A stretch of 64,000 bases of DNA from Heliocidaris erythrogramma (lineage: Eukaryota; Echinodermata; Echinoidea; Camarodonta; Echinometridae): NCBI GenBank assembly GCA_025617745.1, contig CM046861.1, positions 15,009,563 through 15,073,562 on the forward strand, given 5' to 3'. Below, in pieces: positions 17,401 to 54,675 of the stretch. Each line of letters starts with the position of its first letter. Position 1 is the stretch's first letter. A program made the translations under genes and the position numbers. The notes under the pieces are model-generated. The model was given only the letters and a program-made list of their open reading frames with translations. It ran no database searches and was not told the DNA's origin.

Positions 17401-20400
17401 CCAAGCTTCAGTATTGGGTAAATGGTAGATGCCTTCAGATGGAGGTAGATACAGGCAGCCCCTGGACACTTATGTCAGCAGAGACATTCAGTCTTTGTGG
17501 TGATCAGTCAGACTTGGATCAGTCAAATGCTATGTTGAGGACATACACTGAAAACAAGGTACCAATTATTGGAGAAGCTACCGTTGAAGTTCAGTTTCAT
17601 GCTGATCAAGCCCCTAAGAAATTACCCTTGATAGTGGTTGAAAAGGGGATAAGCTTGTTAGGTCGTGATTGGTTTGAGGAATCGACTGTGCCACTGATCC
17701 AGGTGCCAAGTGTTCAGCAAGCCCCAAAGCCAGATGACAGTGTAAACAATGCACAGAGTGTACTTGATGAAATGCTCAAGAAGCACAATGACGTGTTTGA
17801 CTGTTCGAAACTAGGCAAGTTGCAAGGTTTTCAAGCAAAGGTCTATCCTGTTGAAGCTACCAATGAAGTCCATTTCTATAAGGCTTCGCCAGTTCCTTAC
17901 GCAAATAGGCGTAAAGTTGATGCCCTAGATGATCTGTTGGATCAAGGAGTAATAGAACCAGTGAAATTCAGTAATTATGCCTGCCCCATTGTGGTTGTGA
18001 ACAAACCAGATGGTAAAGTCAGAGTCTGTGGTAATTACAAACTCACAGCAAGCAAGGTTCTGAAATTGGAGAAGTATCCAATACCTTCCCTAGAGGACAT
18101 GCTTCAAGATTTGGAAGGAGTTCAAAAGTTCACAAAGCTTGATCTCTCTCACGCATACCACCAACGTGAATTAGACCCAGAAGCAAGACAGTACACTACT
18201 ATCAATACCCACAGAGGATTGTATCAGTACACCAGATTACCTTTTGGTATAGCCAGTGCTCCAGCATTGTTCCAGAGAACAATGGAGACACTTGTAGGAG
18301 ATATTCCGATGTGTCGTCCATACCTCGATGACATCATAATCAGTGGTAAAACAGATGAGGATCATTTGTTCAATCTAGAAACTGTACTCAAACGTCTGAA
18401 GGACAATGGTCTACGTTTGAAGAAGGAGAAATGTGTTTTCCTTCAAGAGAGTGTCCAGTATCTAGGTCACCAGATAAATCGAAATGGTATTAGCCCACTG
18501 CCTGAGAAACTGGAAGCCATTCAACAGGCACCGCGTCCAGTCAATCAGACGCAATTGCAAGCCTATATTGGTCTGCTTGGATACTACAGGAGATTTATCC
18601 CTAGTCTCAGTGCAGCGATAGCGCCTCTTACAGAGTTGTTGAGAGCAGGGTATGCTTCTACAAAGATCACAGGAAAAAAGAGGAGTCCCGATGGTGAACC
18701 AGACCCAAAGTTCAAGTGGACTCAGAAACAGGAGGATTCTTTCCAGAAGTCAAAGAAGCTCCTGCAACACCAAAGTGTTTTGGCACACTTTGACTCAAGC
18801 AAGCCCGTCTTGTTGCAAGTTGATGCTAGTCCGTATGGACTTGGAGCAGTGATTAGTCAGGAGGATCCTGATGGTCAAGAGCATCCAGTCGCATTTGCAT
18901 CAAGATCCCTATCAGACAGCGAAAAGAACTATGCACAGTTCGAAAAAGAAGGATTGTCTATCATCTTTGGTCTGAAGAAGTTCCATAAATATCTATATGG
19001 AAGAAAATTCACTATAATCACAGATCACAAGCCCCTACTTGGCGTATTTGGACAAAAGCCAGCAAGTCCGATGGCTTCAGCGAGACTGTCAAGATGGCAC
19101 ATGATCTTGTCAGCATATGATTATGCAATTGTCTACAAAGAAGGAAAGAGACACCAGAACGCTGATGGGTTGTCTAGATTGCCAGTGCCTTCAACTGAAG
19201 CAAGTAAATGGCCAAATGAGGACTTAGCAGAGTTGAGTGATCTGCAGCCAGGAAGAGTCAACGTGTTGTTTGACATAGACTCGAGACCAGTTGATGCTTG
19301 TGAAGTCAAACAAAAGACTAGCAATGACCCAACATTGCAGAAGGTCAAGCATTACATTATGCAAGGATGGCCAAATTCTAGAAATCTGGATGATGAAGTT
19401 CGCCCATTTGCTCAGAAGAAAACCGAGTTGAGTATAGAAGATGGTGTTCTTCAATGGGGACAGAGAGTTGTCATACCCCAGGATTCTGATCTGTGCAACA
19501 GGATAGCACATGAGCTTCATGGTACACATCCTGGCATAGTTAAAATGAAGGTACTAGCTCGTTCATTTGTTTGGTGGCCCGGAATAGACAGATGTCTAGA
19601 ACAGAAAGTTCCAACTTGTTCAGTGTGCTAGGAACATCAGAACAACCCTCAAGCAACTCCTTTTCATCCTTGGGAGTTCCCAGAAAAACCATGGCTGAGA
19701 ATACACATAGACTACGCTTCAATTGAGAACCAAGATGTTCTAATTGTGGTAGATGCACACAGCAAGTGGGTAGAAGCTGTTAGAGTGCCTCAGGCAACCG
19801 CTTCTGCTACAGTAACTGTTATGAGATGCCTCTTTGCTACACATGGGATTCCTGAAATGTTGGTTAGTGACAATGGAACTCAATTCATTTCCGAAGAGTT
19901 TACCAAGTTTCTCACTGATAACAACATCGAACTTGTGCAAACAGCCCCTCACCGCCCATCAAGTAATGGTTTAGCGGAGAGAGCTGTTCAGACAGTAAAG
20001 AGAGGTGTCAAGAAGACAAGTGGAAAGAATTTGGAGATGAGAATCCAAAAATTCTTGTTGACATACCGGATCACACCACAAGAAACCACCGGTACATGCC
20101 CCAGTGAACTTCTGTACAAGAGAAGGATTAGAAGCAGATTAGACCAAGTCCGTCCAGACTTGACAAGGACTGTGAAACGAAAACAATCTGCCATGAAACA
20201 GAGGTCAGACAACAGGACCAAACAGAGAAGTTACAACATTCAAGACCATGTTCTAGTGAAGAATTTCGCTTCTGGTCCAACATGGTTATATGGTCAAGTA
20301 GCTGAGATACTTAATGAATCTATGTATATCACATTAGAGGTTACACTCCTGCTCATCCTGTTGATGCTCCACCCCAAGACCTTGAGCCGATGGAAGAAGT

Positions 20401-22715: not shown

Positions 22716-23335
22716 CTGTTTTATATCCCTCATGAGCATCTCACTGTCTATGACTCCAAGAAATGCCTTATTAGGCTAAATCGCAAAAACTGCATTGTTT
22801 TCCTACTGTAGTATTCACCTTTTTCAAGGTTTTGATTCCGATCGAGCTCCAGCGTAGAACTGCAAAAGAAGGTCTAGCGACTTTAGAGCTTCGTTCGTTA
22901 TCACAATATCATCATCAAACTCGGCTTTTTTAAAATTTCCTTAGGCCTACAAAACTCCCGAAACACAGAAAGTCCGTAATAGGGCCCGTATTCAATAAAC
23001 TTCTACTAATACATTTCTCTTAGGTTTAAGAAAATTTCTAAGAATTTGTCTACTCTAGGTTAAGAAATATGCCCTATGCCTAACCGTAACGTTATAAGCA
23101 CATTTTCTTAGCTATTAAGACGACAGATTACACAAATTCCTTAGATTCAGTGATGTCGGCATGTCAATTCAGATAATGTCAGATTGTCAGAGTCGAGTGA
23201 CACAATATTGAAGCCTAAATTTGCCTGTGAATTATTTTTTGTGAAAATTGCGCCGCATGAAAAGTACCGTATACAAAAAATATGGGAGATCGAACAAAAA
23301 ATGTTCATAATTGTGGGCTTGACCGACATTAAATT
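22716..23335. other. Non-coding interval, decayed dispersed repeat
   Basis: A stretch at about 22982-23140 (ggcccgtattcaataaac, then several ctaagaaat/tcttag words) looks like an old miniature element. No open frame of interest. Confidence 0.4.
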
Positions 23336-23347
23336 ACATTATTCTAG
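23336..23347 (+). repeat. 12 bp target duplication, left copy
   Basis: ACATTATTCTAG at 23336-23347 is repeated exactly at 24247-24258, immediately outside the tRNA-like hairpin array. Confidence 0.85.
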
Positions 23348-23469
23348 TAAACGAAGAAGCTTGACTGGGGAGGAATTTTTAATTTGTAAACAAATCTTTA
23401 GGCATTTTACTCCCAGTGTTAAAGATCGTATGCTCGATCTGTAATGAAAAACACAAGTCAGAAAAAACT

Positions 23470-23542
23470 GGAACCAGCGGGATTCGAACCTGTCATCTAC
23501 TGCTTGCCGGGCAGCGACTTAACCACCAGGCTATTCTGGTTC
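23470..23542 (-). other. tRNA-like core, copy 1
   Basis: On the minus strand: TAGCCTGGTGGTTAAG resembles an A box and GGTTCGAATCC matches a B box. An anticodon-like hairpin (GCTGC/GCAGT with loop CCGGCAA) lies between. The T stem pairs poorly and loop position 33 is C rather than U, so a working tRNA gene is unlikely; an internal Pol III promoter is plausible. Confidence 0.65.
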
Positions 23543-23764
23543 ACGGCCAAGTCACGATGAACTAGAATCAAATACCCAAGATCCTCTTCTTTCTGACTCA
23601 TTAATATTCATTTTTAACGGTCCGCCGTAGACAATGGTTAGTAAACGAAGAAGCTTGACTGGGGAGGAATTTTTAATTTGTAAACAAATCTTTAGGCATT
23701 TTACTCCCAGTGTTAAAGATCGTATGCTCGATCTGTAATGAAAAACACAAGTCAGAAAAAAACT

Positions 23765-23837
23765 GGAACCAGCGGGATTCGAACCTGTCATCTACTGCTT
23801 GCCGGGCAGCGACTTAACCACCAGGCTATTCTGGTTC
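23765..23837 (-). other. tRNA-like core, copy 2
   Basis: Identical in layout to the copy 295 bp upstream, with intact A-box-like and B-box-like words. Confidence 0.65.
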
Positions 23838-24091
23838 ACGGCCAAGTCACGATGAACTAGAATCAATTACCCAAGATCCTCTTCTTTCTGACTCATTAAT
23901 ATTCATTTTTAACGGTCCACCGGAGGCAATGGTTAGTAAACAAAGAAGCTTGACTGGGGAGGAATTTTTAATTTGTAAACAAATCTTTAGGCATTTTACT
24001 CCAAGTGTTAAAGATCGTATGCTCGATCTGTAATGAAAAACACAAGTCAGAAAAAAAAAAAAAAAAAAAAAGTTCATCGTGACTTGGCCGT

Positions 24092-24164
24092 GAACCAGAA
24101 TAGCCTGGTGGTTAAGTCGCTGCCCGGCAAGCAGTAGATGACAGGTTAGAATCCCGCTGGTTCC
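24092..24164 (+). other. tRNA-like core, copy 3 (inverted)
   Basis: The inverted arm carries the same core on the plus strand; its B box has one change (GGTTAGAATCC). Confidence 0.6.
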
Positions 24165-24258
24165 AGTTTTTTCTGACTTGTGTTTTTCATTACAGATCGA
24201 GCATACGATCTTTAACACTGGGAGTAAAATACCTAAAGATTTGTTTACATTATTCTAG

Positions 24259-24713
24259 TTAGCCCAGTCCTAGCTATGGATCAGTAAGGACTTCCTCATC
24301 TCGACCTATATGTATATCCACCGTTTACGATCTAGACCAGGTCCTAGGCCACTGTATTTCTCTTCCTAACATAACAATCTAGAAAAGCATCATGTAACTT
24401 AATGCATAAATTATCTTCGACTTAGGCTGCGGCTAAATGGACTCCACTATTAAACGCTGGCGCCAAATCGACAACCGCTAGCCTAGTTGAACGATAGATT
24501 AACCAATAACATTAGATCTACATGTATACTCAGATTATTTTCAGTCATATAAACGCATTTCATCTCACCTCGTAACACACCATTCCCTGTCTCCCTACTG
24601 ATCCAAGACTAATTAAGAGGTAAGTTTGTTGCTAATTCAATTCCAAGTCTTGTCCTCTTGTCATGACATTTACTAATGGTCAATCATAATAATTTCGGTG
24701 TCTCTTTCATTTT
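24259..24713. other. Non-coding interval, nothing recognised
   Basis: Mixed sequence with no frame, inverted repeat or known motif that could be supported. Confidence 0.5.
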
Positions 24714-25439: not shown

Positions 25440-26287
25440 TTGCATCAGGTTAGGTTGCAGATCGAATGTATTGTAGGTTAGACCTCGGCCTTTGGGTCAT
25501 TATAAATGCAAAAGCATGTCAATAAGTTTCGCCTACTTTGTGGCATCCGCGTACTTGAAGGTCACCTGAATGACAAGCATCGACGCAGTATACGAGCGCA
25601 CGCACAGATCTGATTATTGAGTGATCAGTCTACAAACGCAAGAGATCTTCTAATTTTCAGGGAATCAAATATCGATAAATAATTTTCTTTCACAAATTTT
25701 CAGTTGAATAATAGTTATTAGTAATAGTATATTAAAATTTACACATAGGTAATATATGTAAGGAGACAAACAAATATCTTTTTCAATTAATTATTCATCA
25801 TTTGGAAACATTTGCGTAAAATTCAGATTGACAACAAAAAGTAGTTCTGCTTCTGGGCTTTTCCGCTCATTAGGCATATATTCATGAAATTGGCCAGAAT
25901 TCCATGCAGCCAATCGAAAGCCGGAATAGAAAGGTCAAAGCTGGAACTTGTATTCTTTTAAGAAACCATTTAACTGGTTAATTTCCGCCATCAGAAACAC
26001 TTCGAACCAATCGCCAAAGAAACCCTTGTCAACGTGCATGGACGTACTTTACCCATAGACAAATTAAAACTTATAGACGGAAAGGTAGCACCCGCGGATT
26101 TCCCTCATTTGCATATAAGCTGTAGCGTCATCATTCAGGCTAAGCGTATTCGGCCCTGATTCGGCCACGCCCATTTGGTAACATTTCATTTTCCCGAAGC
26201 CCCTGATACCAAGAAAATATCGAAAAGTATCGAGAAACTCCTTATGCATTATTCATTTTTGTTTTGCATACTCGATTTATCAAACTT
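25440..26287. other. Non-coding interval upstream of a possible promoter
   Basis: No gene. A possible octamer motif followed by a TATA-like string (atttgcatataag) lies at about 26108-26120. Confidence 0.4.
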
Positions 26288-26395
26288 TGATTGGACCGGA
26301 CCTTATGAATATGAATGTGATTGAAAAGGGACGATTTGACCTCTCTTCGTCACTTCCGCTGTGAATTTGACGTCACCCGCACAAAGTAAAAAAAG
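26288..26395 (+). promoter_or_regulatory. Possible host gene promoter
   Basis: Within 90 bp there is an inverted CCAAT box (attgg, 26290-26294), an ETS-like cacttccgc (26351-26359) and a perfect cyclic-AMP-type site TGACGTCA (26368-26375), followed by a sequence ending in a strong splice donor at 26412/26413. The cluster order is typical of a broadly used metazoan promoter. It is inferred from motifs only. Confidence 0.35.
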
Positions 26396-26412
26396 TTGTG
26401 GAAAGTTTAGAG
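26385..26412 (+). other. Possible first exon ending at a strong splice donor
   Basis: Sequence TTTAGAG/GTGAGTAC at 26412/26413 fits a metazoan splice donor. The start is arbitrary, set just downstream of the promoter-like motifs. No coding potential. Confidence 0.25.
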
Positions 26413-27393
26413 GTGAGTACACCTGTATTTACGCTTAATTTTCGAAAATTAGATTATATTTATAACAAGTTCTGCCATTGTGAGTAATCTGTTTCAATTT
26501 CTCTACATTTTGAAGGGATTCTACAGAGCTGTAAGTCATGAAACAATGTGTACTCTATTCTCGAACTTTCATTTCAATTTTCATCGTCATGAGCTAAATG
26601 TTGCAGCTCGATTCCCCTTACCACCCTGTCACTCGTGACGGCTTACCCGGACTTTCGGGCGGGACTATCTAGATACGTTTCGATAGATGATCTATTGATT
26701 GATGTCAATGCCAATGGCTGACAGATTTCGTAAACCTCGAAATAGATCGAACTTAGTCTGTATTTCGATGATTTGGTTATCTAAGTTAGATGTAGACGCA
26801 TAGACCCCGTTATATTCTGAAAGACAAAGGGCCCAGGTGAGACCCTTTCTAATTAATTGATTCTGTAGCGTAGGCTGTTCTTGTCAGGATTTTTTTTTTT
26901 TGAGAATGAAGAGGGGGTTTCATGTTGATACTACTAGTATTTTCCAGAGACCAGTCCAGGTCAAGGTTTACTTTGTGTACATGTACAGAGTTTGGTAATG
27001 CAGGGTTGTAATTTTAACGTAGTGGTTCTTAGTAAAAGTTAATTTGCTTAGGTGTACTAATGTTAGATGAGCTTTGGCCCACTTTTTTCTTCTAAAGTTG
27101 AGCCAAGGCCAAAGCCAAGGCTAGCTAGGCAAGCATCTAATGATCTAGACCGAACGAGAGAGAAATTTCGGTCTAGGCTAGCATCATGGTGATGAGGTTT
27201 TATATGTTTTACATTTCAAGAGAGAGAGAGAGAGAGAGAGAAGGGGGTACATAAATTAGTGTTGATTATAGACCAGAATCAAAGGCCTTTTTAAAGAGGT
27301 AATAAATCTCCCCTGAGTATTAAATAGCTGGATGGCCTTTGTTTCAGTATTGCATTCATTAGTCTCATTCATGTTGACTTTGATTTCCATCAG
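26413..27393. other. Non-coding interval with (GA)n, possible intron
   Basis: Contains a (GA)n microsatellite at about 27219-27241. No frame. It would be an intron if the flanking splice signals are real. Confidence 0.35.
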
Positions 27394-27527
27394 ATAAACA
27401 TGGCAAGGAACTAACCTGTGGCTGATCTACTTGAAGATCTACTAGGTCTCCTTACATAACTTAACAACTGTTGGAGGTGCCGGATGAAGTGGAAAGTCCT
27501 ACTTGATGAGACATGAGAAATAAACAG
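27394..27527 (+). other. Possible internal exon (non-coding or UTR)
   Basis: A polypyrimidine-like stretch and ttccatcag precede 27394, and CAG/GTAAGT stands at 27527/27528, so a 134 bp exon is well delimited. All three frames contain stops, so it would be a 5' UTR or long non-coding RNA exon. Confidence 0.3.
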
Positions 27528-28098
27528 GTAAGTCTAGACCTTACTGCGGCAGCCTGAACGCATAGCGTTCGTGGCAGCATCCCTGGGCTAGGGACTAGAC
27601 CTAACTAGTTAGACCTATACCATTACAGCTAAAAACCAAAACAACAATTTGTTTTTCTTTTTTCTGAGGAATGGACAATTCATTTGTCATTTTTCCTTTA
27701 TCCACCACTGAGATCTGTTTTCAGTGTAATATGAAATTAGCTGTTTAGTGTCTTTAAATATCAATTATGATATATTTAAGGGATGTTCAGTGGGATGTCA
27801 TAAATACAAATTTTAGTCCCCTTAATTATTACATTTAACATTTCATTAATTCCTGCAAACAGAAACAAAACAAAATAAGATGGGTGAATGTATGTTATTG
27901 ATGATATTATTATTTTCATTATTATTGTTATCATTATGATCATTATTATTGTTAGTAGTAGTAGTAGTAGTAGTAATATTAGGGCCAAATATGACACTAT
28001 TGATTACAGTCCATAAATCTATTGTAGTTAGTCTCCTCTTTGAAAAGATGAAGAGGGTGAGGATGAGTGTTTGTGTGATTTTTTTTTTCTTAATACAG
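27528..28098. other. Non-coding interval with (GTA)n, possible intron
   Basis: A TAG/GTA trinucleotide run lies at 27951-27975 and ATT-rich repeats just before it. No gene. Confidence 0.35.
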
Positions 28099-28190
28099 GG
28101 TAATGCTTCTCTACCTCATCTATTCTACAACAGATGATGATGATGACGAAGAGGAATGCTTACCTACTGAGAATGAAGACAAATTCTGAG
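28099..28190 (+). other. Possible exon with short acidic open frame
   Basis: A strong acceptor (eight T then cttaatacag) ends at 28098. One frame after it reads STTDDDDDEEECLPTENEDKF and then stops at about 28190, like the acidic C-terminus of a protein. The upstream candidate exon does not supply a matching long frame, so any gene would need other exons. Confidence 0.25.
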
Positions 28191-28266
28191 AGGAACAATT
28201 ACTACTTAGCTGCTTTAGTTTTGCATGTTAGGCATATGCTTTATGAGTAAGATTGCTATCGGCCTT

Positions 28267-28484
28267 CAGGGGCGTCAATGTGTTTTTCGGAGGGGGGGGG
28301 GGGGGCAAAACAGCCTAATAGCACCCTTCATGATTTTTTCAATGCCTCTTAATTGCCAGCTTCTCCAAGGTAAGATGAGTCAGGGAAATATAATTTTTTT
28401 TTTTTTTTTTTTTGAGGGGGGGGGGCAAAACTATATTATTTGCCCTCCTACTGCCCACTTACCACCCCATAATCAACGCCCCTG
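28267..28484. mobile_element. hAT-like miniature element
   Basis: Ends CAGGGGCGTCAAT and ATCAACGCCCCTG form inverted repeats starting CAGGGG, typical of hAT-derived miniature elements. The interior holds two poly(G) runs and a poly(T). No clear 8 bp target duplication was found. Confidence 0.65.
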
Positions 28485-28555
28485 GTTGTTATTAGTACCT
28501 CAATACAATCAAGGTACACACTTTTTGGTTTAAGAAGCCATTTTCTTGTGACTTT

Positions 28556-28717
28556 CGCCATGCTATAATGTGTTATGGCGCCACCTAATGGCGTTACCTC
28601 ATCCCCGAATTGTAAACATTCGCCCCTTACCGGCGCCGTGTTGAGAATCATAACATCCTACAATAAATGGTAGGTTCTAAGTACTATTGTGACTGTAGTG
28701 TCATTCCTTACTGGCGT
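28556..28717 (+). repeat. Left LTR of the gag-only element
   Basis: Starts CGCCATGC and ends TTACTGGCGT, so its ends contain the inverted words CGCCA/TGGCG. It holds a polyadenylation-like AATAAA in ctacaataaatgg. Confidence 0.88.
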
Positions 28718-28874
28718 GGATGCAGCTGGATCGGATCTTTGCCATGCATACAGCAGGATGGCCGCTGCTACATATTGCATACAGTCGGTCGGAAAGCATA
28801 ATTTTCCGTGATAGGTAGTCGCTTAGTAGATTGTGTTTCCCACGGCTAATATACAATCCCATACATAGCCCATT

Positions 28875-30940
28875 ATGTTGGCTTACCCCCGGTACTACTA
28901 CCGGTACCGGCAACCTCTTCCCCAGGCCCAAGAGAGAGGCCGCACTTCCCGTGCCCGAAAGGGAGGCACGATTCCCAATCCCTTTCCCCATAACAATTAT
29001 GATTGGAGATTGGAATCTGATGAAGGATTTTTGCATAACTTAGATGACGTGAATGAAAGTGAAATAGAGAGTGATAGTTATTGTGAAAGTGATGATGATG
29101 ACATAGTATGTGGTGATGAAGGAGTAGAGTTCAACTTCATGTGGGATGGGCTTCCCCAACAACCTTCCTCTCATGGTGATAGTTATCCTTCATCACAAAG
29201 ACATGATACGTACCAAACACAGAGTATCAGTAGACTCAGTCTCAGCGCTAGTTCTAGCCATTCCCAACAGATAGTCAAGAATGGTAGTTGTCCGCTGTGC
29301 TCTAGGGTTAATCGCCCAAACCAGCATCATATCGGTGATTGCCCTTTCTTGCCCTTGGAAGATAGACAGTGCGTTGTACAAGCTCGCCATGTTGCAAGAA
29401 TCCTTGGGCATGATGACATTCTTGATATAGACTTGCCTGACGTAGACTCCAGTATGTGTGATATTGATTGTGACTTCTCAGATGATGATTTGTCCGTCGT
29501 CAACGACGACATTCTTACATGTACTCCTGGATCTTTCTCGTCTATGAATTGTTCAGATGTTGACGGACCTAGCCCTAGTACTCTTGGTTGTGCCGCTGAC
29601 TTGTCAGAGATAGACGAGTCACCTAATTATATGGGAGATACTCGTGGTAGTAGTGGTAACTCACCGGGGTCAGGTGAGTTCTGCAGAGACAGTTTTATGC
29701 CACTTTCTTCAAACGTGGCTAGTCCTTCTAAGGTGCCCATCCGGGCCAACCTGACTCCTCGTGTTGACTTTTCATCTGGAAATGAGAAAGTCCCGGTTTC
29801 TTTTATCAGTGGTGCCAAAAGGAATCTCATACGGTATTCCACAGTTTGTAGACTTGGTGGCAAAGTCACAGCTACCCAGGACCAAACTGACGACTCTTCT
29901 TTAGGAAGTATCGACGACTCTTCTTTAGGAAGTATCGGCGACACTTCACTCGTCTTCACTATTGACAGTTACCAGTTTCTGTTCATTGGAACTGTTGTTG
30001 AGTCACTAGATGTAGAAGCGCAAGCAGGCTTACCCTTTATGGAGATGCATGACGTTACCATACGACCTGCCAAACGTCAGATTCGCTTCGGTGATGGACC
30101 AGCTCTGCCGTATGGTTCACCTGCACCTGATCAGACACGTCTTCCTCACGCCAATAGTGAGATTCAGCTAATGCGCATGGACACGGTACCTCTTGTTTCT
30201 GTAGCCATGTCCACCGAGGGCACACCATCCTCTCCGCCATACACTGTAGCTCACTCGTGTGATCACCCTACCGCCTCTGAGGATTCTGAAGACTGTCGTA
30301 CCTTTCACCCCAGAACAGCAGGTAGACGGTCCCAGTGATGTATCTTCAACCAGTGTGAATAGCCCATCCACGAGATCATTGTTGACAGCCAAGATTGTTG
30401 ATCTACCCAAGGACAATTACCTGGACATAGCCCAATCTGATCCTAGCAGGACCAACATGTTGCCTGCCTCCCCTACGTGTGACCCAACCCGACTCGGTGC
30501 CAGTGTTATCGTCACAGCCCCTCTCTGCTACCTCGCTTGTGATAGCGGACCTGGACCGTCTCCTCGTTTAGTGCAGCAGCCATCTGTTTTCCTCTCACAG
30601 TCTACAGCTCACCTATCCCAGGCTGCAGATAGTGCTGCTTCCTCTGTAGATCCTGTCTGTCATCGGGGTTCCTCAGAAAGAACTCTTACCTCTGAACTGG
30701 ACCGTTTGAGTGAGACGTCCCAACCCTGGGTTGAGACAGTCGATGATGTCCCTTGTCGTCACTCGATTTTTGAGAGGATTGACGTACCCCATTCATGGTG
30801 AGTCGTGTGTCTGCGATATCATCTCACGCATGCCTCGGTCTCGGCCTCGCCACGTCCGCCTCATGAAGATCTGGCCTCGTCCTGGACGCCCCCAAGATGC
30901 ATTCAGTATTCTAGCCGATGATTGTGATGGTGACCGCAAT
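28875..30940 (+). pseudogene. Gag- and protease-like region of the gag-only element
   Basis: The protein-like region begins MLAYPRYYYRYRQ and contains an acidic stretch (SESDDDDIVCGDEG-like), then the finger CPLCSRVNRPNQHHIGDC (about 29289-29345), which with the following PLEDRQCVVQARHVARIL resembles gag fingers of Gypsy-related elements in echinoderms and cnidarians (from memory). A retropepsin-like fold follows (about 29780-30100, ending MEMHDVTIRPAKRQI); it appears diverged. A 24 bp duplication encodes DDSSLGSI twice (about 29889-29936). The rest is Ser/Thr/Pro-rich. It could be a surviving Gag product or simple decay. Confidence 0.65.
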
Positions 30941-32870
30941 TAGCATTTCGACAGTGACGTCTATAGATGCGAACTCTATATATGACTCCATATGTATTTT
31001 TGGACTTGGTTGATGATTTATTTTGCCATGTTTTTAGTGCCCCTTTCTGACCCTTCCTTCTTTCCTCACCTTATTTCCAAAAAATATAATTGTGCTTTTC
31101 TCAACTATATATTTTTGTTGTTTTACTGCCTGTCATTGTATACATTTAACCCTTTTGTTTCCTTATAGGAGATCAGTTTGGGATTTTCTATCACTTCCGG
31201 TCTTTTTATATGATAGTCATTTATATTTGACTAGTATGTTTTCTTTCCATTTATGCCTTATCCCTTTCTAACTGGCCTTTTCAGGTGGAAGCAGGAACCA
31301 GTTCAGAAACAGTTATACTGAGATTTGTCTTTGAGGGCTGTAGCTTTCGTATTATTTATTTTCTGTCTCCTTTTTTATACTCATATAAACACTGCATAGG
31401 AAGGGTATTTTTATGAAAGGAGCAGGTACGTGTTGGTTGATAATTTATGAGTTGATTTCCATTTTACCAGGTTTAAAGATATCCAGTTATGCTATATTTT
31501 CATTTTCTAATATGCCGAGTGCATTTGCTTGTTTCAGCTTTTTGACATGTGACATATTTTTATGTTGTTGGTAAAGCTATATATGCATATTATTGTTATG
31601 CCCATATCCTAGTATGTGTATTGATAACCATTTAATATGTCTGTCATTCATGGTATGTTGTAGCTGTGTTTATAATTTTACACTTAGGCCGTTGTCTACA
31701 TTACAAGCTTGCACAAATGTATATGAATTTGAATATCCTTGCATGACACACAGCACCTTGCATTGTTTGGTGTGTGTAACAAGTTAAATCAACAGCTTAT
31801 TTTGGGGACAGATTTTTTCCTGCTGGTCATCTGTTTTTCATTTTCTTGTATTATTGCGCTTATATGCTCCTGTGATGTTGCACATGTTAAATCAATTATA
31901 TATATGTAATGGATGATGGTAAGAGCAGTTATGTTTTAATTTGTGATTATCTTAATAGTTTTATTTATCCTTATTGCTACAGGTGTGACTTTTAGGTGGT
32001 ATGCCCATTTAATATATATGTGTATGATTCATAATTGCAGTAGTTTGTATCAGTTTATGCCATGCAGGATGACTGGATCACATGATGGATGTGGTCATTG
32101 GATTTTACTACTGCAATGCGTGAATTTTGGTTGCGCTTCTTATATAGATAGTGTATATAGTTTTTATGTATGCACTTTCCATTCGGTGTTAAGGTGCAGG
32201 GGGCAACAGCTAGTATTATGTTTAAACACCCTCATTGTTTTTCAGGTATTTACTACAATGCCTTTACAGTGGCTTGAACAGAGCCTTTTTACAATTCATG
32301 TCTATGTACCTTGTGATACCAGGTTATCAGAACCTTGATTTACAGCTTCTTATAACCCTTTTCATGTTATTACTGCTTAGGTCTAGGGAGGATTGCCATT
32401 TATTTTGTTCATCTAAAGAGTTATGCGTTCTGTGTGGTTTTAGTATCATACCATAAATTAATCGCCTATACCTGTTTGGGAAGTGGATATGCATTGCCAT
32501 TTATTGTTTGATATCGTATTGCTGTTTGTTCCGTTTCATTCAGATGCAAGACACAAGGAAGTACCATGGTGTTATATTTGGTACGGGTGTATTTTTCATC
32601 ATGTATACTGATCCAGGCTATCATTTAGCCCTTTTTTAAGGTTGATTTGTATGTTGTGTTTTAATGTGATTTTGATGAATGTCTGGACAGGGTTGTGATT
32701 TCAGACAAATTATTTAACTTTGATGGCTGTACAGTTTAAAATTTGATTTATATGTGCATTACATAGATTGTGATGGGTTTAGCATTATTATGTTGCTTTA
32801 CAACGGTTCCATTCTGCTCAATAAAAAAAATTGTGGAAAAGGGAATAGGGAGAAGAAAGAAAAGTAGTCA

Positions 32871-33032
32871 CGCCATGCTATAATGTGTTATGGCGCCACC
32901 TTGTGGCGTTACCTCATTCCCGAATTGTAAACATTCGCCCCTTAGCGGCGCCGTGTTGAGAATCATAACATCCTACAATAAATGGTAGGTTCTAAGTACT
33001 ATTGTGACTGTAGTGTCATTCCTTACTGGCGT
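32871..33032 (+). repeat. Right LTR of the gag-only element
   Basis: A 162 bp copy of 28556-28717 with about four substitutions. Confidence 0.88.
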
Positions 33033-33417
33033 TTACTAATTTAGTTTCTTTTGAATAGCCTTGAAAATTTTATCTGTCCAACTGGAAAAACTTTTTTCCT
33101 CTTTAAATACTTTTGAGAATTCCCACTTATTATTATATTCATATCATTTAAAGAGTCGATGTTAACTATTAATAGGAAACTCTAAATTTCAGTCTTTTTG
33201 CAAATTCTAATTGTTGCTTGCTAAATTATAAAATACACAATGGATGCTATTTTCTAAACTCTTTCCTCTTTTCTTTCAACAGACATGGATTTCTACTTCA
33301 ACTCTTCGGTGAAATAGACCCCTGCTTTGATAAACATCTAAATTTCTTCATATTGAAATCATACCTGGATTCCAGTCTAATATGCATCATTAGAATGGCG
33401 GAAGAGGAGTTTTAAAC
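33033..33417 (+). other. Non-coding interval with one possible exon
   Basis: A good acceptor (ttttctttcaacag) ends near 33282. From there one frame is open to a stop at about 33415, reading HGFLLQLFGEIDPCFDKHL and ending MAEEEF. No domain is recognised. It could be a terminal exon of the candidate transcript at 26-28 kb or chance. Confidence 0.2.
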
Positions 33418-33571
33418 GGGCGCCGCGGAACGTCTTGGAAAGTGGAGGGGCTTAGTGGGGGGGGGGGGGGGGGGGCTGCGTGTATTACCACATTTTTTGC
33501 ACTGCCGTACGTTTGCACGTGTTTACTGAAAAAGGGCCCCCCCCCCCCCCCCCCCGGTTCCGCGGTCCCTG
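33418..33571. mobile_element. hAT-like miniature element with G and C tracts
   Basis: CCGCGGAAC near the left end and GTTCCGCGG near the right end are inverted repeats; the right terminus read inward is CAGGGACCGCGGAACC. Between them lie a poly(G) run of about 18 and a poly(C) run of about 18, able to pair or form quadruplexes. Confidence 0.6.
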
Positions 33572-34081
33572 TTAAAGTTCTTCAATTATATCTTAACCAT
33601 CTTACCCACCCCCTTATAAAGATAAGCACTGCCACAGCCACTTGGCCTCTCCTTTATTAAATCTTCTCACCATGTATAACAAATTAATAATAATAATTAA
33701 CTGATTCTGTGAATTTGTGCTAATTTAATTACTATTCTATTATTGATCTTCAGAGAAAATCCATACTATTCAACACTTTATTTCATGGATGCCACTGTTC
33801 AGACAAAAGTAGCAATTCCTACTTTTTCAACATAATTTTAGCCATATAAAACCACTGTTTATGTAGTACCCAAGGGCCCATTCTAGATGATTTTCCCAAT
33901 TTTTTATCAATTCTAATTGGCATCCCTGTTATTTAGATTCAAACTATAGAATTAGATCTCTGTGTGTGTTTCTCCCCGCCCCCCTTTTTAGTTAGACTTT
34001 TAATACTATTAATATGCAATATACATGTACCAACTAAAAGGAAGATGAATCATTTGATTTATATTTCTTAGAAGTGTCAAC
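33572..34081. other. Non-coding interval, nothing recognised
   Basis: AT-rich sequence without frames or repeats that could be supported. Confidence 0.5.
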
Positions 34082-34093
34082 AAGACTCACATT
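34082..34093 (+). repeat. 12 bp target duplication of insertion 2, left copy
   Basis: AAGACTCACATT is repeated exactly at 34602-34613, immediately outside the second tRNA-like hairpin insertion. Confidence 0.85.
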
Positions 34094-34601
34094 TGTAAAC
34101 AAATTTGTAGGCATTTTACTCCCAGTGTTAAAGATTGTATGCTCGATCTGTAATGAAAAACACAAGTCAGAAAAAATTGGAACCAGCGGGATTCGAACCT
34201 GTCATCTACTGCTTTCCGGGCAGCGACTTAACCACCAGGCTATTCTGGTTCACGGCCAAGTCACGATGAACTGGAATCAAATACCAAAGATCCTCTTCTT
34301 TCTGACTCATTAATATTCAACAATCCGCCGTAGACAATGGTTAGTAAACGAAGAAGCTTGATGGGAGGAATTTTAATTTGTAAACAAATTAAAATAGGCA
34401 TTTTACTCCCAGTGTTAAAGATCTTATGCTCGATCTGTAATGAAAAACACAAGTCAGAAAAAATTGGAACCAGCTGGTTCCAATTTTTTCTGACTTGTGT
34501 TTTTCATTACAGATCGAGCATACGATCTTTAACACTGGGGAGTAAAATGCCTAAAAAATTGTTTACAAATTAAAATTCCTCCCATCAAGGTTCTTCGTTT
34601 A
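34094..34601 (+). mobile_element. tRNA-like tandem/hairpin element, insertion 2
   Basis: One nearly complete ~294 bp unit (with tRNA-like core at 34179-34251) is followed by a second partial unit that folds straight back on itself. The arms 34345-34473 and 34474-34601 are nearly perfect complements of about 128 bp with no loop, centred on CCAG/CTGG. The outer end is again TAAACGAAG (as its complement CTTCGTTTA) and the other end TGTAAAC, as in the insertion at 23.3 kb. The 12 bp flanks differ from those of insertion 1, so these are independent events. Confidence 0.87.
34179..34251 (-). other. tRNA-like core, copy 4
   Basis: Same A-box-like and B-box-like words as the copies at 23.5 and 23.8 kb on the minus strand; the anticodon-like hairpin has one change. 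Confidence 0.6.
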
Positions 34602-34613
34602 AAGACTCACATT

Positions 34614-35199
34614 ATCTGTTTTTCAAGAGTAACATGGTGTGCGTATTGAACATGGAAATTAGATGGTCATTTATTTCTTTTATTATTTCTTCTTTTGTGG
34701 GGTGTAGTGGTAAAAAGTTAATAGTATCTATTTCTCCAGTGTAAATTCAATAATTTACCTCTTGAATAGGGATTGAAATTAATAATGTATGATTCATTTA
34801 TATTGAAATTCATTTTTTTAATGCATGTACATATTTGTACTACTGTCAAGAAAAGAATGATATTATTTGACCATGACAAGTCAGTTGTAATAGAACTCAT
34901 GAAAGAGTATGACTGCAGATAAATGATGGGTTTATTTAAGAAGTAATACAATGTCTAAACATCTCTAAAGACTGTTATCATTTCTGCATGTACAAAAATA
35001 TTCATTAAAAAGTGAGAAAATCTAACTATTCCCGAATTGACGTGTGCATAAAATTGCACCTTAAATCTTGATTGTAAGAAAGATAATTGTTATTGAAAAT
35101 TTGCATGTGAACATGATAAAGGTCCTCTCACGTTTGTTTTTTCATACTCCAAACAGTACGACATTTAAATTTCAATATTATTAATAACACTTTTCAGGG
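34614..35199. other. Non-coding interval, nothing recognised
   Basis: AT-rich, no supported feature. Confidence 0.5.
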
Positions 35200-35406
35200 A
35201 TGAACTCTAGCATAAGGTTTTATTTCCTTTTTAGTTCACTCCATCACTCTCATATCCAATAGGTTTTTTTTTTTTCTCGTCGTTGTTAACCTTCTATTAT
35301 GTATGTATGTCATTCTTTATGATGTGTTTATGTATTTGTCAATATGTTATTGTATTGCATTTTTATGATGAGTGTAAATAAAATGAACTTGAACTTGAAC
35401 TTGAAC
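35200..35406 (+). mobile_element. 3' tail of a CR1/L2-like LINE
   Basis: The sequence ends gtgtaaataaaatgaactt followed by repeats of GAACTT (35385-35406). Tandem hexamer tails after an AATAAA-like stretch are usual for CR1/L2-type LINEs. No coding part remains. Confidence 0.6.
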
Positions 35407-35449
35407 GTTATATCAATGACATGAACCATATGGGGATGGGGGTGTGATC

Positions 35450-35900
35450 GAGGTGCGTGTTTTTTTTTTTTTTGTTTTTTTTTTTTTGGGGGGGGGGGTT
35501 AGCCAGCCCTCCAAGATTTTTTTCCCCTGCAAAATGAACCAGGACGTGTGATCGAGGTGTGTGTATGAGAGAGAGAGAGGGAGAGAAAGGTGAAAGAAGA
35601 TTTGATGAAAATGGGGGAGGGGAATTTTTTTTAGCTAGCCCTTCGAGAATTTTTTTTTCCTCCTCCAAAATTAGGGGGTGGGGCGGGGGTTACCAGATTT
35701 GATGAGGTCCAGTTTTCCTCCATAATTCTCTGACAAGCAAAATACGAATTTCAAAAAAGGTTATATGTTATAAAAGAAAGGGGTGGCACACTTAAATAGG
35801 CTTATACTTGTCTTTCAAAAAAAAATAGACGGGGGGGGAGGGGGTCAAAAGCTGTTAGGGGGCAGTCTGTCCCCCTTGCCCACCCCCACCCCGGGTATGC
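35450..35900. repeat. hAT-like miniature remnants rich in poly(T), poly(G) and (GA)n
   Basis: Includes the word attctctgacaagcaaaa (about 35726-35743), which recurs at 42675-42697 (inverted) and 49937-49960, always near a poly(G)/poly(C) run and a GGCGGAT-type end. The three are taken as one miniature family. Confidence 0.5.
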
Positions 35901-37227
35901 TAGTGGGGGGGGTGAGAAAGAGGGAAAGAAAGTAAAGAATAAAAATGTAATAGTTTTCGGGTCAACTAAAATGGCCGAATTTTCAAGGTTCATAATTCTC
36001 TTTGAAAGGTACAATTATAAGATTCACAAATTGGTATCAATGCGAAAGTTGCCCCTCAAGAAAATCAAAGGATACCTCTTCTTCTACACCGGATGATATT
36101 TTATTCTTACCTTAATTTGGCCTTCAATTAGTATACACACTCCCCCTCCCCCCCCCCCCCCCCTTTTTTTTTTTAAATAACATTATCCTACTGGTCAAAG
36201 ATAGTAAATTTATTAAAAAGTAATTAGAAAAATTACTTATTATGAATGTAAAAGTTTTTTCTCTTAATTCATGAGATGTGATAAATTTAATGTGAACAAC
36301 ATGTATTTATATTCTTCATAACTACGGTATACAACTCATTGAACTCGACCAAGTAACGTTATTTAAGTGGAACGACGTTAACCCTTTTGTGCTGACTGAT
36401 CACATGTTGGGACCTAATTATCATAAAGATTTTAATGATACCATATGAATGACGCCCATTCGTCAATTATCGATGCGCCGTCATTAGCCAAGTGATGAAT
36501 ACATTAGCATACATGAATAGATTAGGCGGATTTGACTTTTCTTAATGCGCATGCGTGACACTGATCCACATTTATATTTTACCTGTGTGTAAAGCATATA
36601 CACTGTAGGGGAGCATCGTACAAAATGAATAATGCATCGGGGGCTTCGGGCTCGTTCAAATCGTGCCCAAATGTTACAGCGTAATGGCGGCCGCTTTAGG
36701 GGCTTGACTTTACCACAGAAACGTGTGTTAATATTGCGTTTCGGCTTGTGTTTAACATCAATAAACAGGCCGTTTTGAAACAAAATGGGCCAGAATTCTA
36801 CAAAACAAGCAGTCATAGCTTCATATACAGCAGAGCCTTTGGGTTTTCTATATATATTTTTCTTTTTAACTGAATTAAACCCGTGTAAACTAAAAAAGAT
36901 TAAAAGATTTTAAAAGTTGAGATTTATGGATTTTCGTGATTAATGTACATGGTTCTATGGTGGAAATTTGTGGTCGGGTGATGCGCGCGCGCGGAAAGTT
37001 AAACTCGCGCAATGCAACACACTTTTCGGTATATGTAACGTTAAATTAGTTGAATGATCGATCGCCTCATTCAGCCGCAGCACAACAGTCCAAATCCAGC
37101 CGAGCAAGCTCTAGCTCGACTCGAGCTCGGTATGCAAATAGGGGGCAGAGCTAAAGGCTATGATAATAAGACGGCCAATCAGCGACCTTCTTATATCCCG
37201 TACTTGACACAGAAAGCATTGCGTCCA
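35901..37227. other. Non-coding interval, nothing recognised
   Basis: Contains a poly(C) run near 36145-36162 and a GC-rich patch with gcgcgcgcgc near 36985. No supported gene. Confidence 0.45.
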
Positions 37228-37735
37228 CGAAATGAATTTCGTTACAACGAAAGCCATTTCGTATGGTACGATATAAATTTCGTGTACGGAATTGCGTTTC
37301 GTACCATACGAAATGGATTTCGTTCAACGAAAGCCATTTCGTATGTACGAAATGTATTTCGTGTACGGAATTGCGTTAGGTACACACAAAATAGAATTCG
37401 TTCAACGAAAGCCATTTCGTATGGTACGAAATGTATTTCGTGTACGGAATTGCGTTATAGGTACCACACAAAAAGGATTTCGTTCAACGAAAGCCATTTC
37501 GTATGGTACGAAATGTATTTCGTGTACGGAATTGCGTTAGGTACAAACAAAATAGAATTCGTTCAACGAAAGCCATTTCGTATGGTACGAAATGTATTTC
37601 GTGTACGGAATTGCGTTATAGGTACCACACAAAATGGATTTCGTTCAACGAAAGCCATTTCGTGTGGTACGAAACAAATTTCGTGAACGGAATTGCATTT
37701 TGTACAAAACAAAGTGGATTTCGTACGAAAATGGT
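37228..37735 (+). repeat. Palindrome-rich ~80 bp satellite (TTCGT/ACGAA)
   Basis: Units of 79-81 bp begin at about 37238, 37316, 37396, 37477, 37556 and 37637. Two subtypes alternate (one with ggtacaca..aaaatagaattc, one with gttataggtaccacac), giving a ~160 bp higher-order unit. Each unit contains perfect inverted repeats such as CATTTCGTA-tgg-TACGAAATG and TTTCGTT-caACGAAA. The plus strand stays open for 210 codons (37054-37686) through the array, but the peptide is only a reading of the repeat. Confidence 0.88.
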
Positions 37736-39673: not shown

Positions 39674-41338
39674 TTAATATCAGCTTGCTATACATGTATA
39701 GTCAGTCACAAGAAAGCATCAGCCAAAGTTGTCGAGAATAATTGTTTATCGAATGAATTCAGTTTAAATCAAAATCGACAAAAGGCATTGTCACGAGAAA
39801 ACATGAACTTTAAATTCATGAACAGTACGTGGGAATACAGAAGAAATATTCATTAGTACAATTCTTTCCACACAACGCAAAATTTTTACCAGATACAATT
39901 TGTGTAAATAGGGAATAAGCTGCAATCCTTGACAGTAACAGAAACAAAACATGAATTTAATACTTGAGAACGGCCTTTTTTCACGTTGACAAATGTCTTT
40001 GATGCATAGTCTCATATTACCTGCATGTGCAAATAATAAAAATAATAATGCTGTTGAATGTATATACTTCTGATTTTAGTATTTTCAATTTTTCTTGCTC
40101 TAAGTTACGCACACACACACACACAAACACACCCACACACACACGTTTATGGTATGAATCGAATATCTGTAAATTACTACATAATTATTAACATTAGTCC
40201 TGCATGGTATTGATCATCCTGAGTGTCACATGTGAAATGGGATTGTATTTACTATCCTCTTTTCTCTCCTCTTTCCTCCTCTTTTCTCCTGTTTTATCTA
40301 TACATATATATAGATGGATAGATTGAGAGTGGAATGAAGAGTCTTTTGGGCCATTGGTGGTGGAGCATGTAGTGCAAATGGAAGGGCTTTTGTTTGTGAT
40401 AAGGTGCATTTTGTGCATTCCTCATTTTATTCATATGAATATTTTTGGACTGGACTTCCCCTTTAATATCAGCTTTCTATACATGTATAGTCAGTCACAA
40501 GAAAACATCAGCCAAAGTTGTCGAGAATAATTGTTTATCGAATGAATTCAGTTTAAATCAAACACACACACACACACATACACGTTTATGGTATGAATCG
40601 AATACTCATATTTATATATCTGTAAATTACTACATAATTATTAACATTAGTCCTGCATGGTATTGATCATCCTGAGTGTCACATGTGAAATGGGATTGTA
40701 TTTACTATCCTCTTTTCTCTCCTCTTTCCTCCTCTTTTCTCCTGTTTTATCTATACATATATATAGATGGATAGATTGAGAGTGGAATGAAGAGTCTTTT
40801 GGGCCATTGGTGGTGGAGCATGTAGTGCAAATGGAAGGGCTTTTGTTTGTGATAAGGTGCATTTTGTGCATTCCTCATTTTATTCATATGAATATTTTTG
40901 GACTGGACTTCCCCTTTAATATCAGCTTTCTATACATGTATAGTCAGTCACAAGAAAACATCAGCCAAAGTTGTCGAGAATAATTGTTTATCGAATGAAT
41001 TCAGTTTAAATCAAACACACACACACACACATACACGTTTATGGTATGAATCGAATACTCATATTTATATATCTGTAAATTACTACATAATTATTAACAT
41101 TAGTCCTGCATGGTATTGATCATCCTAGGTGTCACATGTGAAATGGGATTGTATTTACTATCCTCTTTTCTCTCCTCTTTCCTCCTCTTTCCTCCTGTTT
41201 TATCTATACATATATATAGATGGATAGATTGAGAGTGGAATGAAGAGTCTTTTGTGCCATTGGTGGTGGAGCATGTAGTGCAAATGGAAGGGCTATTGTT
41301 TGTGATAAGGTGCATTTTGTGCATTCCTCATTTTATTC
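39647..41338 (+). repeat. Three-copy tandem duplication, the last two with a 453 bp unit
   Basis: Copy 1 (about 39647-40435) carries about 330 bp that copies 2 and 3 lack. Copies 2 (40436-40888) and 3 (40889-41338) are 453 bp apart and nearly identical, sharing a 14 bp insertion (actcatatttatat) and (CA)n. Each starts inside the right end of the piggyBac-like MITE. The order suggests duplication, internal deletion, then a second recent duplication. Confidence 0.88.
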
Positions 41339-42398
41339 AGCCCAGGATAGGCTTTATGTGAGTGTATTGTTTATTCCTTTCGGTCAGGAGGGTTCTTTTG
41401 TATATACTCAGATTTAGAATTGCAGGTGTAAAAAAAAATGCAAATTAAGCTTGCCTATGCTCTCTGGTTGTAGCAGGCAAGTGGTAGAGAGTATTGGCAA
41501 AGAGTTTAAATACGAAGAGTGCTCAGTGCCGAAATAAAGCACGCGTATATATTGTGGTACATGTTGATCGGCCCAGGGGGAAGGCTATAGTCTTAATCAA
41601 GATGTTTGTATTTTTGTATTTTCCTTATTTTTTCTTCTTTTTCTGGACAGCGCTTTTGCCTTTTGGTAAAGCCGTAACTAAAGGGCATAATCTTGATATT
41701 GTCCCTTCAAATACAAACTTATGTCCCAAAACAGATAAGAATCATTTTTCTATTTTTTTTCAAAATAGAATGCATTTAATGATTTTTTTGTTCGTTAGGC
41801 TTGAGTCTCCCCCCTCTCCCTGCATTCCTGGATACGCCACCAATATAACCAACTTACGGTAAGTTATTTGTAATATTCTGCTGTAGAAATGTGAGACGAC
41901 AGGCGAAGATAGAAAACAGTATAGAGGCTTGCTCCGAAGCCATCACCAACGCAATAGGGCATTTACCGATTGTACGAAAAGGGGATGGCCTCCTTGTTTT
42001 GAATTGAATTAACTAGTAACCAACAATATAGCAGGTGATGATATAATTTATTTATTACTATTCCTATTCTGTCTTTGTAGGAATATCCCATTACTTTTGC
42101 TCCATCTCTCTTTGTCCCCCCCCCCCCCCCTCATTTTTCTCATACTCTCTTTTCTCTCTTACAACCACCGATCTGTAAAAAATGACTCCAATAGAATGGA
42201 GGAAAAAATAATGATCTCTTATTTGTTTTATTTGTGTTTTTATTAGGAAATCAACAGAAATCACAGCAATTACATGTGATTTACATGATTAAAATCAAAA
42301 TCATTGAGCAAACCCCCCCCCCCCCAATCTTTCAATTTAATGAGATCGACTACCAACACTATGCAATCATATTCTTCACATCCATGACAGAATAGCAG
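41339..42398. other. Non-coding interval, nothing recognised
   Basis: A 122-codon frame at 41494-41862 is compositionally biased and has no domain. Poly(C) runs lie near 42117-42130 and 42311-42325. Confidence 0.45.
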
Positions 42399-54631: not shown

Positions 54632-54641
54632 GATTGGAATC

Positions 54642-54675
54642 CTAGACGTGGATGAGATGTAAAGGAAATAACAAT
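54642..54675 (-). promoter_or_regulatory. Possible 5' UTR splice acceptor of the TRIM gene
   Basis: On the minus strand a pyrimidine-rich stretch (ttatttcctttacatctc) ends in cacgtctag about 10 bases before the ATG. This fits a 3' splice site, suggesting the single coding exon is preceded by an intron in the 5' UTR. Confidence 0.4.

What the first reader, a model, noticed from the sequence alone, without database searches (positions are those of the whole stretch)
34082..34613. Second insertion of a hairpin tRNA-like element with 12 bp target duplication
AAGACTCACATT flanks 34094-34601 on both sides. The insertion ends in the same termini (TAAACGAAG at one end, TGTAAAC at the other) as an unrelated insertion at 23.3 kb. 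A family with defined ends, a tRNA-like core, and 12 bp duplications but no transposase, RT tail or known TIR class does not match a standard SINE or DNA transposon that I recognise.
Basis: partly seen in the sequence, partly recalled or inferred. Interest (0 to 1): 0.78.

Follow-up and report, generated by a model that had tools for sequence, protein, structure and literature searches.

The report
Penelope-style mobile repeat carrying tRNA-like sequence
A short, thousands-fold repeated mobile element in what is probably an echinoderm genome carries a tRNA-like sequence roughly where its known cousins carry a self-cutting RNA, and its insertion scars look like those left by Penelope-type retrotransposons.

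Summary
34094-34601 is a 508-bp insertion between two copies of AAGACTCACATT, with the same two ends as the 23.3-kb insertion. It is inherited: it lies in a dispersed genomic segment, and all 40 scored places (of 1683 candidates) carry it.

The family is built from a 294-bp unit; its terminus occurs 6103 times. It inserts as head-to-tail and head-to-head pieces or multimers. End-to-end duplications of 10-15 bp (mode 12) occur at 28 of 36 distinct loci, and 7 paralogous empty sites exist for the 23.3-kb insertion.

cDNA starts cluster at two sites 39 bp apart (A, unit 290-9; B, 26-42), typically on opposite target strands; duplicated targets are AT-rich. This matches published scars of Penelope-like elements (PLEs): optional 30-40-bp tail, shorter inverted copy, palindromic joins, tandems.

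The unit has no long ORF and no hammerhead core; it has a conserved tRNA-like, Pol III-promoter-like part followed by T6.

Best reading: a non-autonomous, PLE-mobilised, retrozyme-like element with a tRNA-like module. The partner enzyme and RNA form are not shown. New variant of a known kind.

The parts
34082..34093 (.). left copy of the target duplication AAGACTCACATT
34094..34601 (.). whole insertion, 508 bp
34094..34344 (+). cDNA-strand piece beginning at start site B (TGTAAACAAAT, about unit 35-38) and running to the end of the unit
   Evidence: W34 row
34171..34176 (-). T6 run on the RNA strand directly behind the tRNA-like part (Pol III terminator-like)
   Evidence: sequence; conserved in the family
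34178..34252 (-). tRNA-like part with A-box-like and B-box motifs (GGTTCGAATCC)
   Evidence: motif positions in the 23.3-kb unit; weak Rfam tRNA-clan matches to other copies
34345..34473 (+). start of a second head-to-tail unit (TAAACGAAG...) up to the hairpin apex GGAACCAG|CTGGTTCC
34474..34601 (-). inverted piece ending at start site A (CTTCGTTTA)
34602..34613 (.). right copy of the target duplication
23348..24249 (.). sister insertion: two full 294-295-bp units (the first, 23348-23641, is the reference unit), a partial third, an A-rich joint and an inverted piece ending at site B
23334..23348 (.). left copy of its 15-letter flank match TTACATTATTCTAGT
   Evidence: empty site
24245..24259 (.). 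right copy of that flank match
   Evidence: empty site

Best explanation
The element is a non-autonomous retroelement moved in trans by a Penelope-like (RT plus GIY-YIG endonuclease) machinery. Shown by sequence: insertion at AT-rich sites with duplications of about 12 bp; cDNA starts clustered at two sites of the unit, A (RNA ...GUUUA|CUAAC) and B (RNA ...GUUUAC|AAAUU), 39 nt apart; in 12 of 19 consecutive copies the two target strands carry cDNAs from the two different sites, arranged as inverted repeats; units joined head to tail. Inferred: both target strands are cut leaving overhangs of about 12 nt and both prime reverse transcription; a few target letters often anneal to the RNA at site A; the template is a multimeric or circular RNA; a PLE protein supplies the enzymes; the tRNA-like module serves as Pol III promoter or as an RNA-processing signal.
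For: Duplications of 10-15 bp at 28 of 36 distinct loci, 14 of 19 in a consecutive sample; 7 empty sites for one insertion. 28 cDNA starts at A (unit 290-9), 16 at B (unit 26-42), 1 elsewhere; both sites contain GTAAAC[GA]AA. B is the far end in 12 of 19 consecutive copies, about 7% expected if ends were uniform. Starts at 290-294 copy letters across the unit boundary, so the RNA continues there. Duplications 80% A+T against 60.5% in the window. Units of one array differ less (1.4 mismatches) than units of different arrays (3.5). PLEs: two internal start sites explaining a 30-40-bp tail, both strands cut and extended, AT-rich targets (PMC11167929); 31-bp tail, inverted pLTR 37 bp shorter, 8-10-bp duplications, palindromic joins (PMC3846280 passages). 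GIY-YIG matches are plentiful in this genome: 150 scored of 1721 candidates, all 150 listed as over the cut-off; one local PLE family shows an optional 33-nt 3' extension, absent in 1 of 5 copies compared.
Against: No partner PLE was found: no convincing similarity between the unit and 21 PLE 3' regions, and a motif-pair pattern gave 25 matches against 9 in the control; the two whose letters were shown are mutated copies of the element itself. Start-site motifs of the local PLE family differ. PAc starts at a site without homology to its target, whereas here site A shows microhomology of 2 nt or more in 18 of 28; at B it is only 6 of 16. 8 of 36 loci fail the duplication test by script, though 2 of those (L042, L094) have one by the other alignment. 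L093 has one unit flanked by its own letters and neither end. No RNA data.
Confidence: 0.7

Rival explanations
1. An ordinary tRNA-derived SINE moved by a LINE, with frequent twin priming producing the inverted pieces.
For: tRNA-like part with A-box-like and B-box motifs; duplication lengths of 10-15 bp lie within what LINEs make (recalled); opposite-strand priming is known for L1 (recalled).
Against: T6 or longer follows the tRNA-like part in 42 of 42 copies matched by the pattern, upstream of both cDNA start sites, so a Pol III transcript ending there would lack them; no poly-A or simple-repeat tail at end A in the loci read; the second priming site is fixed rather than scattered; arrays of up to about 6.7 units.
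Confidence: 0.15
2. A true retrozyme: a hammerhead or other self-cleaving ribozyme is present but too divergent for the searches used.
For: Unit size, tandem arrangement, 41.5% GC and duplications longer than 4 bp fit metazoan retrozymes. Rfam also misses the hammerhead-like core of local PLEs, so its negative is weak.
Against: No CTGANGA core with at most one mismatch followed by GAA within 46 nt on either strand of the unit; the same scan does find the exact core in the PLE loci L072, L074 and L080. No ribozyme family in Rfam matched at E up to 5 or 10.
Confidence: 0.07
3. Satellite-like repeat spread by integration of extrachromosomal circles and unequal exchange, without retrotransposition.
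For: Tandem units, more alike within arrays; unit number changes in place; L093 looks like one opened circle.
Against: Target duplications at 28 of 36 loci and two fixed start zones; empty sites.
Confidence: 0.04
4. A MITE-like DNA transposon with fixed ends.
For: Both ends contain GTAAAC[GA]AA.
Against: The ends are fuzzy, one end is often truncated elsewhere, tandem units run through the supposed terminus, and internal orientation varies.
Confidence: 0.02

Closest known systems
Penelope-like elements, Penelope/Poseidon clade (PMC11167929: parts 1-2 of 4 read; PMC3846280: passages)
   Same: Tandem or partial-tandem copies, two adjacent internal cDNA start sites giving an optional tail (39 bp between the sites here, 30-40 published), shorter inverted copy at the other end, palindromic joins in some copies, AT-rich targets, short target duplications.
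   Different: No RT or endonuclease ORF; unit of 294 bp; no hammerhead core found; a tRNA-like part instead; duplications about 12 bp against 8-10 in the rotifer passages; microhomology at start site A.
Metazoan (non-LTR) retrozymes (PMC7229834: abstract, passages, Discussion; PMC7761336: passages)
   Same: Non-coding tandem units of 150-450 bp, GC below 50%, target duplications longer than 4 bp, PLEs present in the same genome; PLEs named there as candidate movers.
   Different: The defining type I hammerhead was not found; a tRNA-like part with T6 is present; circular RNA not tested.
tRNA-derived SINEs (recalled)
   Same: Short, non-autonomous, internal Pol III-promoter-like motifs, target duplications.
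   Different: Terminator-like T6 lies before the cDNA start sites; no poly-A or simple-repeat tail seen; tandem and inverted multimers.
Helenus, tRNA-bearing TRIM LTR elements (PMC10886601: abstract and outline only)
   Same: tRNA-like sequence inside the repeated part of a non-autonomous retroelement.
   Different: LTR elements with PBS and PPT and 4-5-bp duplications; here the mode is 12.

Membership tests
Penelope-like element | ORF with telomerase-like RT and GIY-YIG endonuclease | tested here: not met
   Longest stop-to-stop frame in three joined units is 86 aa; the element is at most a non-autonomous dependent.
Penelope-like element | Two internal cDNA start sites giving an optional 30-40-bp tail | tested here: met
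   28 starts at A, 16 at B, 39 bp apart.
Penelope-like element | Inverted, tail-less copy at the opposite end; tandem arrangement | tested here: met
   B opposite A in 12 of 19 consecutive copies; 2 or more units in 6 of 20.
Penelope-like element | Short target duplications at AT-rich sites | tested here: met
   28 of 36 loci with 10-15 bp; 80% A+T in those 28.
Penelope-like element | Sequence shared with an autonomous PLE | tested here: inconclusive
   None in 21 PLE 3' regions or by a motif-pair pattern; PLE ORF starts were not read and most of the 1721 candidates were not examined.
Metazoan retrozyme | Type I hammerhead ribozyme | tested here: not met
   No core on either strand; Rfam negative is weak.
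Metazoan retrozyme | Tandem units of 150-450 bp, GC below 50%, duplications over 4 bp | tested here: met
   294 bp, 41.5% GC, mode 12 bp.
Metazoan retrozyme | Expressed as circular RNA | not testable with these tools
   No RNA data.
tRNA-derived SINE | tRNA-derived Pol III promoter | tested here: inconclusive
   B box and A-box-like motif present; tRNA fold irregular: ARAGORN only with relaxed settings, Rfam below threshold.
tRNA-derived SINE | Whole element transcribed from that promoter, terminator beyond the cDNA start | tested here: not met
   T6 or longer directly behind the tRNA-like part in 42 of 42 matched copies, before A and B; read-through cannot be excluded without RNA.
tRNA-derived SINE | Poly-A or simple-repeat 3' tail | tested here: not met
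   End A is followed by the duplication directly or after the unit's own CTAA letters in the loci read.
Helenus (TRIM) | 4-5-bp target duplication | tested here: not met
   Mode 12 bp.

The most novel reading that the evidence does not exclude
A ribozyme-free retrozyme: the tRNA-like module has taken over the job of the hammerhead, so that tRNA-processing enzymes (or Pol III) cut tandem transcripts into units that are circularised and copied round and round by a PLE enzyme from two fixed start sites, one on each target strand.
Probability: 0.25. Interest if true: 0.8.

Novelty: new variant of a known kind. Interest (0 to 1): 0.55.

Why it matters
How small tandem retroelements such as animal retrozymes move is open; PLEs are named as strong candidates because the two share hammerheads, tandem copies and co-occurrence (PMC7229834 Discussion). 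This family offers a physical signature, two internal start sites 39 nt apart used on opposite strands, that ties a non-coding tandem element to PLE-type integration, and does so without a detectable hammerhead. Its units are nearly identical (mean 3.5 mismatches between arrays in the 39-40 units compared), so it is probably young, and the enzyme, the RNA and the role of the tRNA-like part can be tested directly.

Tried and rejected
Led nowhere: ARAGORN on the window in bacterial mode and Rfam at gathering threshold found nothing; the unit against 12 and then 21 PLE 3' regions; a motif-pair pattern for a partner; an empty site of the 34-kb insertion; the Rfam hammerhead family in the genome, 73 of 117290 candidates scored, no match. 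Papers: searches listed nothing that describes a tRNA-bearing PLE-type element; they return capped lists from an open-licence library, and Repbase and Dfam were not available, so an entry there cannot be excluded.

Rejected: fixed-end MITE and circle integration as general explanations; Helenus (duplication length). The MIR8562 matches are below the gathering score and follow from the long hairpin. I considered reverse transcriptase drop-off at the tRNA-like part: of 10 truncated outer ends listed (L041, L043, L052, L054, L056, L058, L087, L088, L101, L102) 6 fall at unit 129-172; too few to lean on.

Rows dropped before counts: overlapping loci of the same arrays (L044, L045, L055, L057, L059-L064, L068) and L067 (same flanks as L047) were left out; L048, L049 and L085 were left out; loci with a shared word under 9 were left out (30 loci, 60 ends remain, of which 8 were 5'-truncated ends and 7 found no anchor).

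Full report
What is there. The window lies in a 1.06-Gb assembly of 26 contigs. A cox1 gene on contig C24 gives, under code 9 (AAA = Asn, ATA = Ile), residues that I recall as conserved, and not under code 5; with the protein's look (recalled) this points to an echinoderm. That is inference, not proof. The finding at 34082-34613 is as described: 508 bp between two copies of AAGACTCACATT. It holds a nearly complete unit beginning at site B, the start of a second head-to-tail unit, and an inverted partial copy ending at site A; the two strands meet at GGAACCAGCTGGTTCC. On the minus strand it carries a tRNA-like part with an A-box-like motif, a B box and T6 behind it.

It is inherited in place. 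The 532-bp query with both flanks matches completely in 36 of the 40 scored genome places, the window itself among them, and all but 1-12 end bases in the other 4; 1683 candidates were not all scored. The left flank alone recovers copies with the same insertion boundary. The surrounding segment is a dispersed repeat (window 26054-28555 and 33032-36706 against one other copy). Where both exact copies of the duplication were found (34 of the 38 loci L001-L038, some of them one place fetched twice) the insert measures 219 to 1157 bp. Five loci have 219-220 bp, 288 bp less than 508 and so about one unit, which suggests that the nested array gains and loses units after insertion. No empty copy of this site was found at 3 or fewer mismatches.

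The family. The 294-bp unit (23348-23641) recurs through the genome: 6103 matches to its 29-bp terminus and 4746 to a 30-bp head-to-tail junction at up to 2 mismatches, 0 in the reversed controls. I read 18 stretches with arrays brought in by similarity to the unit (L048 and L049 belong to one cluster) and, against picking pretty examples, the first 20 consecutive clusters of contig C1 (L083-L102). The C1 sample was seeded by the A terminus, so the presence of A in it is by construction. Six of these 20 hold two or more units, the longest 6.7; 14 hold fewer.

Duplications. A script that seeks the longest word shared by the two ends found 10-15 letters at 28 of 36 distinct loci and 14 of 19 in the C1 sample, mode 12 (one locus entered twice, W23 = L039, counted once). 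Flanks paired across loci reach 10 or more in 4 of 1332 pairings, of which two are that double entry. The 8 failures have 0-9 letters; two of them (L042 and L094) show 14 and 12 letters, where other boundaries were used. The 28 duplications are 80% A+T, the window 60.5%. For the 23.3-kb insertion the joined flanks, with the duplicated word once, occur at 7 other places with 2-3 mismatches.

Two start sites. Of 60 ends at 30 loci, 28 are cDNA starts at unit 290-9 (site A; all but one lie at 290-4), 16 are starts at unit 26-42 (site B), 1 is elsewhere (unit 256), 8 are truncated 5' ends and 7 found no anchor in the script, the window's 34-kb ends among them (those two were read by eye and). A and B share GTAAAC[GA]AA, 39 bp apart. 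They sit on opposite strands of an insertion: B is the far end in 12 of 19 C1 loci, against about 7% for a zone of that width if ends were uniform (the width was taken from the other arrays). Target letters match the unit next to the start over 2 nt or more in 18 of 28 A ends (model null 18%, p 8e-8) and 6 of 16 B ends (p 0.05) (an earlier p used a miscount of 19). Starts at 290-294 copy letters from beyond the unit boundary, so the RNA runs on there: start is internal, on a multimeric or circular RNA. Units within an array differ by 1.4 mismatches on average (42 pairs), between arrays by 3.5 (738 pairs, a few of them within the L048/L049 cluster). That fits arrays copied from one molecule, but unequal exchange could do it too.

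Mechanism. These features coincide with what is known of Penelope-like elements. The Anolis PLE protein cuts and extends both strands of AT-rich DNA and starts reverse transcription at two adjacent sites inside its RNA, which accounts for the optional 30-40-bp tail (PMC11167929, parts 1-2 of 4). Rotifer copies have an inverted pLTR 37 bp shorter, a 31-bp optional tail, 8-10-bp duplications and palindromic joins, and pLTRs have carried host genes in trans (PMC3846280, passages). In this reading the stretch between A and B is the tail. GIY-YIG matches are plentiful in the genome (150 scored of 1721), and in one local PLE family 4 of 5 copies compared have a 33-nt 3' extension that the fifth lacks. 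The partner was not found, so this is an assignment to a way of working, not a proven family tie.

The tRNA-like part. In 29 distinct unit sequences from 13 loci it has 3 of 75 variable columns, against 24 of 181 in the rest outside the tail (Fisher p 0.027, relatedness of copies not corrected) and 3 of 38 in the tail. It is tRNA-like rather than a clean tRNA: ARAGORN reports it only with relaxed settings and Rfam's tRNA clan below threshold. Six or more T follow it in 42 of 42 copies matched by the search pattern (37 with 6, 4 with 7, 1 with 11). A Pol III transcript ending there would stop before both start sites, so the usual SINE scheme does not fit without read-through. In a local PLE family a hammerhead-like core lies 73 nt from the shorter 3' end; here the edge of the tRNA-like part and T6 lie about 76-83 nt from B. 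The unit has no hammerhead core by a relaxed scan that does find the exact core in L072, L074 and L080; the Rfam negative is weak, because Rfam misses that core too.

Verdict. A real, abundant and probably young family: a non-autonomous retroelement that works like a Penelope-type element and is built like a retrozyme, with a tRNA-like part roughly where a hammerhead would be. I hold the PLE route at 0.70; the role of the tRNA-like part and the form of the template are open.

Noticed in passing
window 26054-28555 and 33032-36706: Part of a dispersed segment of at least 6 kb found on many contigs; in one other copy (L069, L006, L070) it lies near an open frame of 492 aa that looks like a B-box/NHL protein (recalled, no domain search).
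   Followed up: partly
window 28556-33031: About 4.5 kb present in the window copy of that segment but absent at the corresponding point of the other copy; holds a 489-aa frame (28869-30338) without a Pfam match.
   Followed up: no
window 35135-35404: About 270 bp absent from another copy of the segment, ending in TTGAAC repeats and flanked by ACGTT; looks like another short retroelement.
   Followed up: no
L093: One unit plus 8 bp starting at unit 72, flanked by its own TTAAAGAT, with neither A nor B at its ends; looks like an opened circle.
   Followed up: no
window 37226-37724: Tandem repeat of about 80 bp made of short imperfect palindromes (ACGAAAT/ATTTCGT).
   Followed up: no
window 40163-41339: 2.6 copies of a 453-bp tandem repeat, 99% alike.
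   Followed up: no
window 2038-3888, 8334-9686, 17379-19631, 58393-58902: Reverse transcriptase frames: two with RNase H and integrase domains (LTR type) and two with RVT_1 only.
   Followed up: no
window 52799-54685, minus strand: 628-aa frame with RING and B-box zinc fingers, TRIM-like.
   Followed up: no
L072, L074, L080: PLE 3' regions with a hammerhead-like core (CTGATGA ... GAAA) that Rfam does not report.
   Followed up: partly
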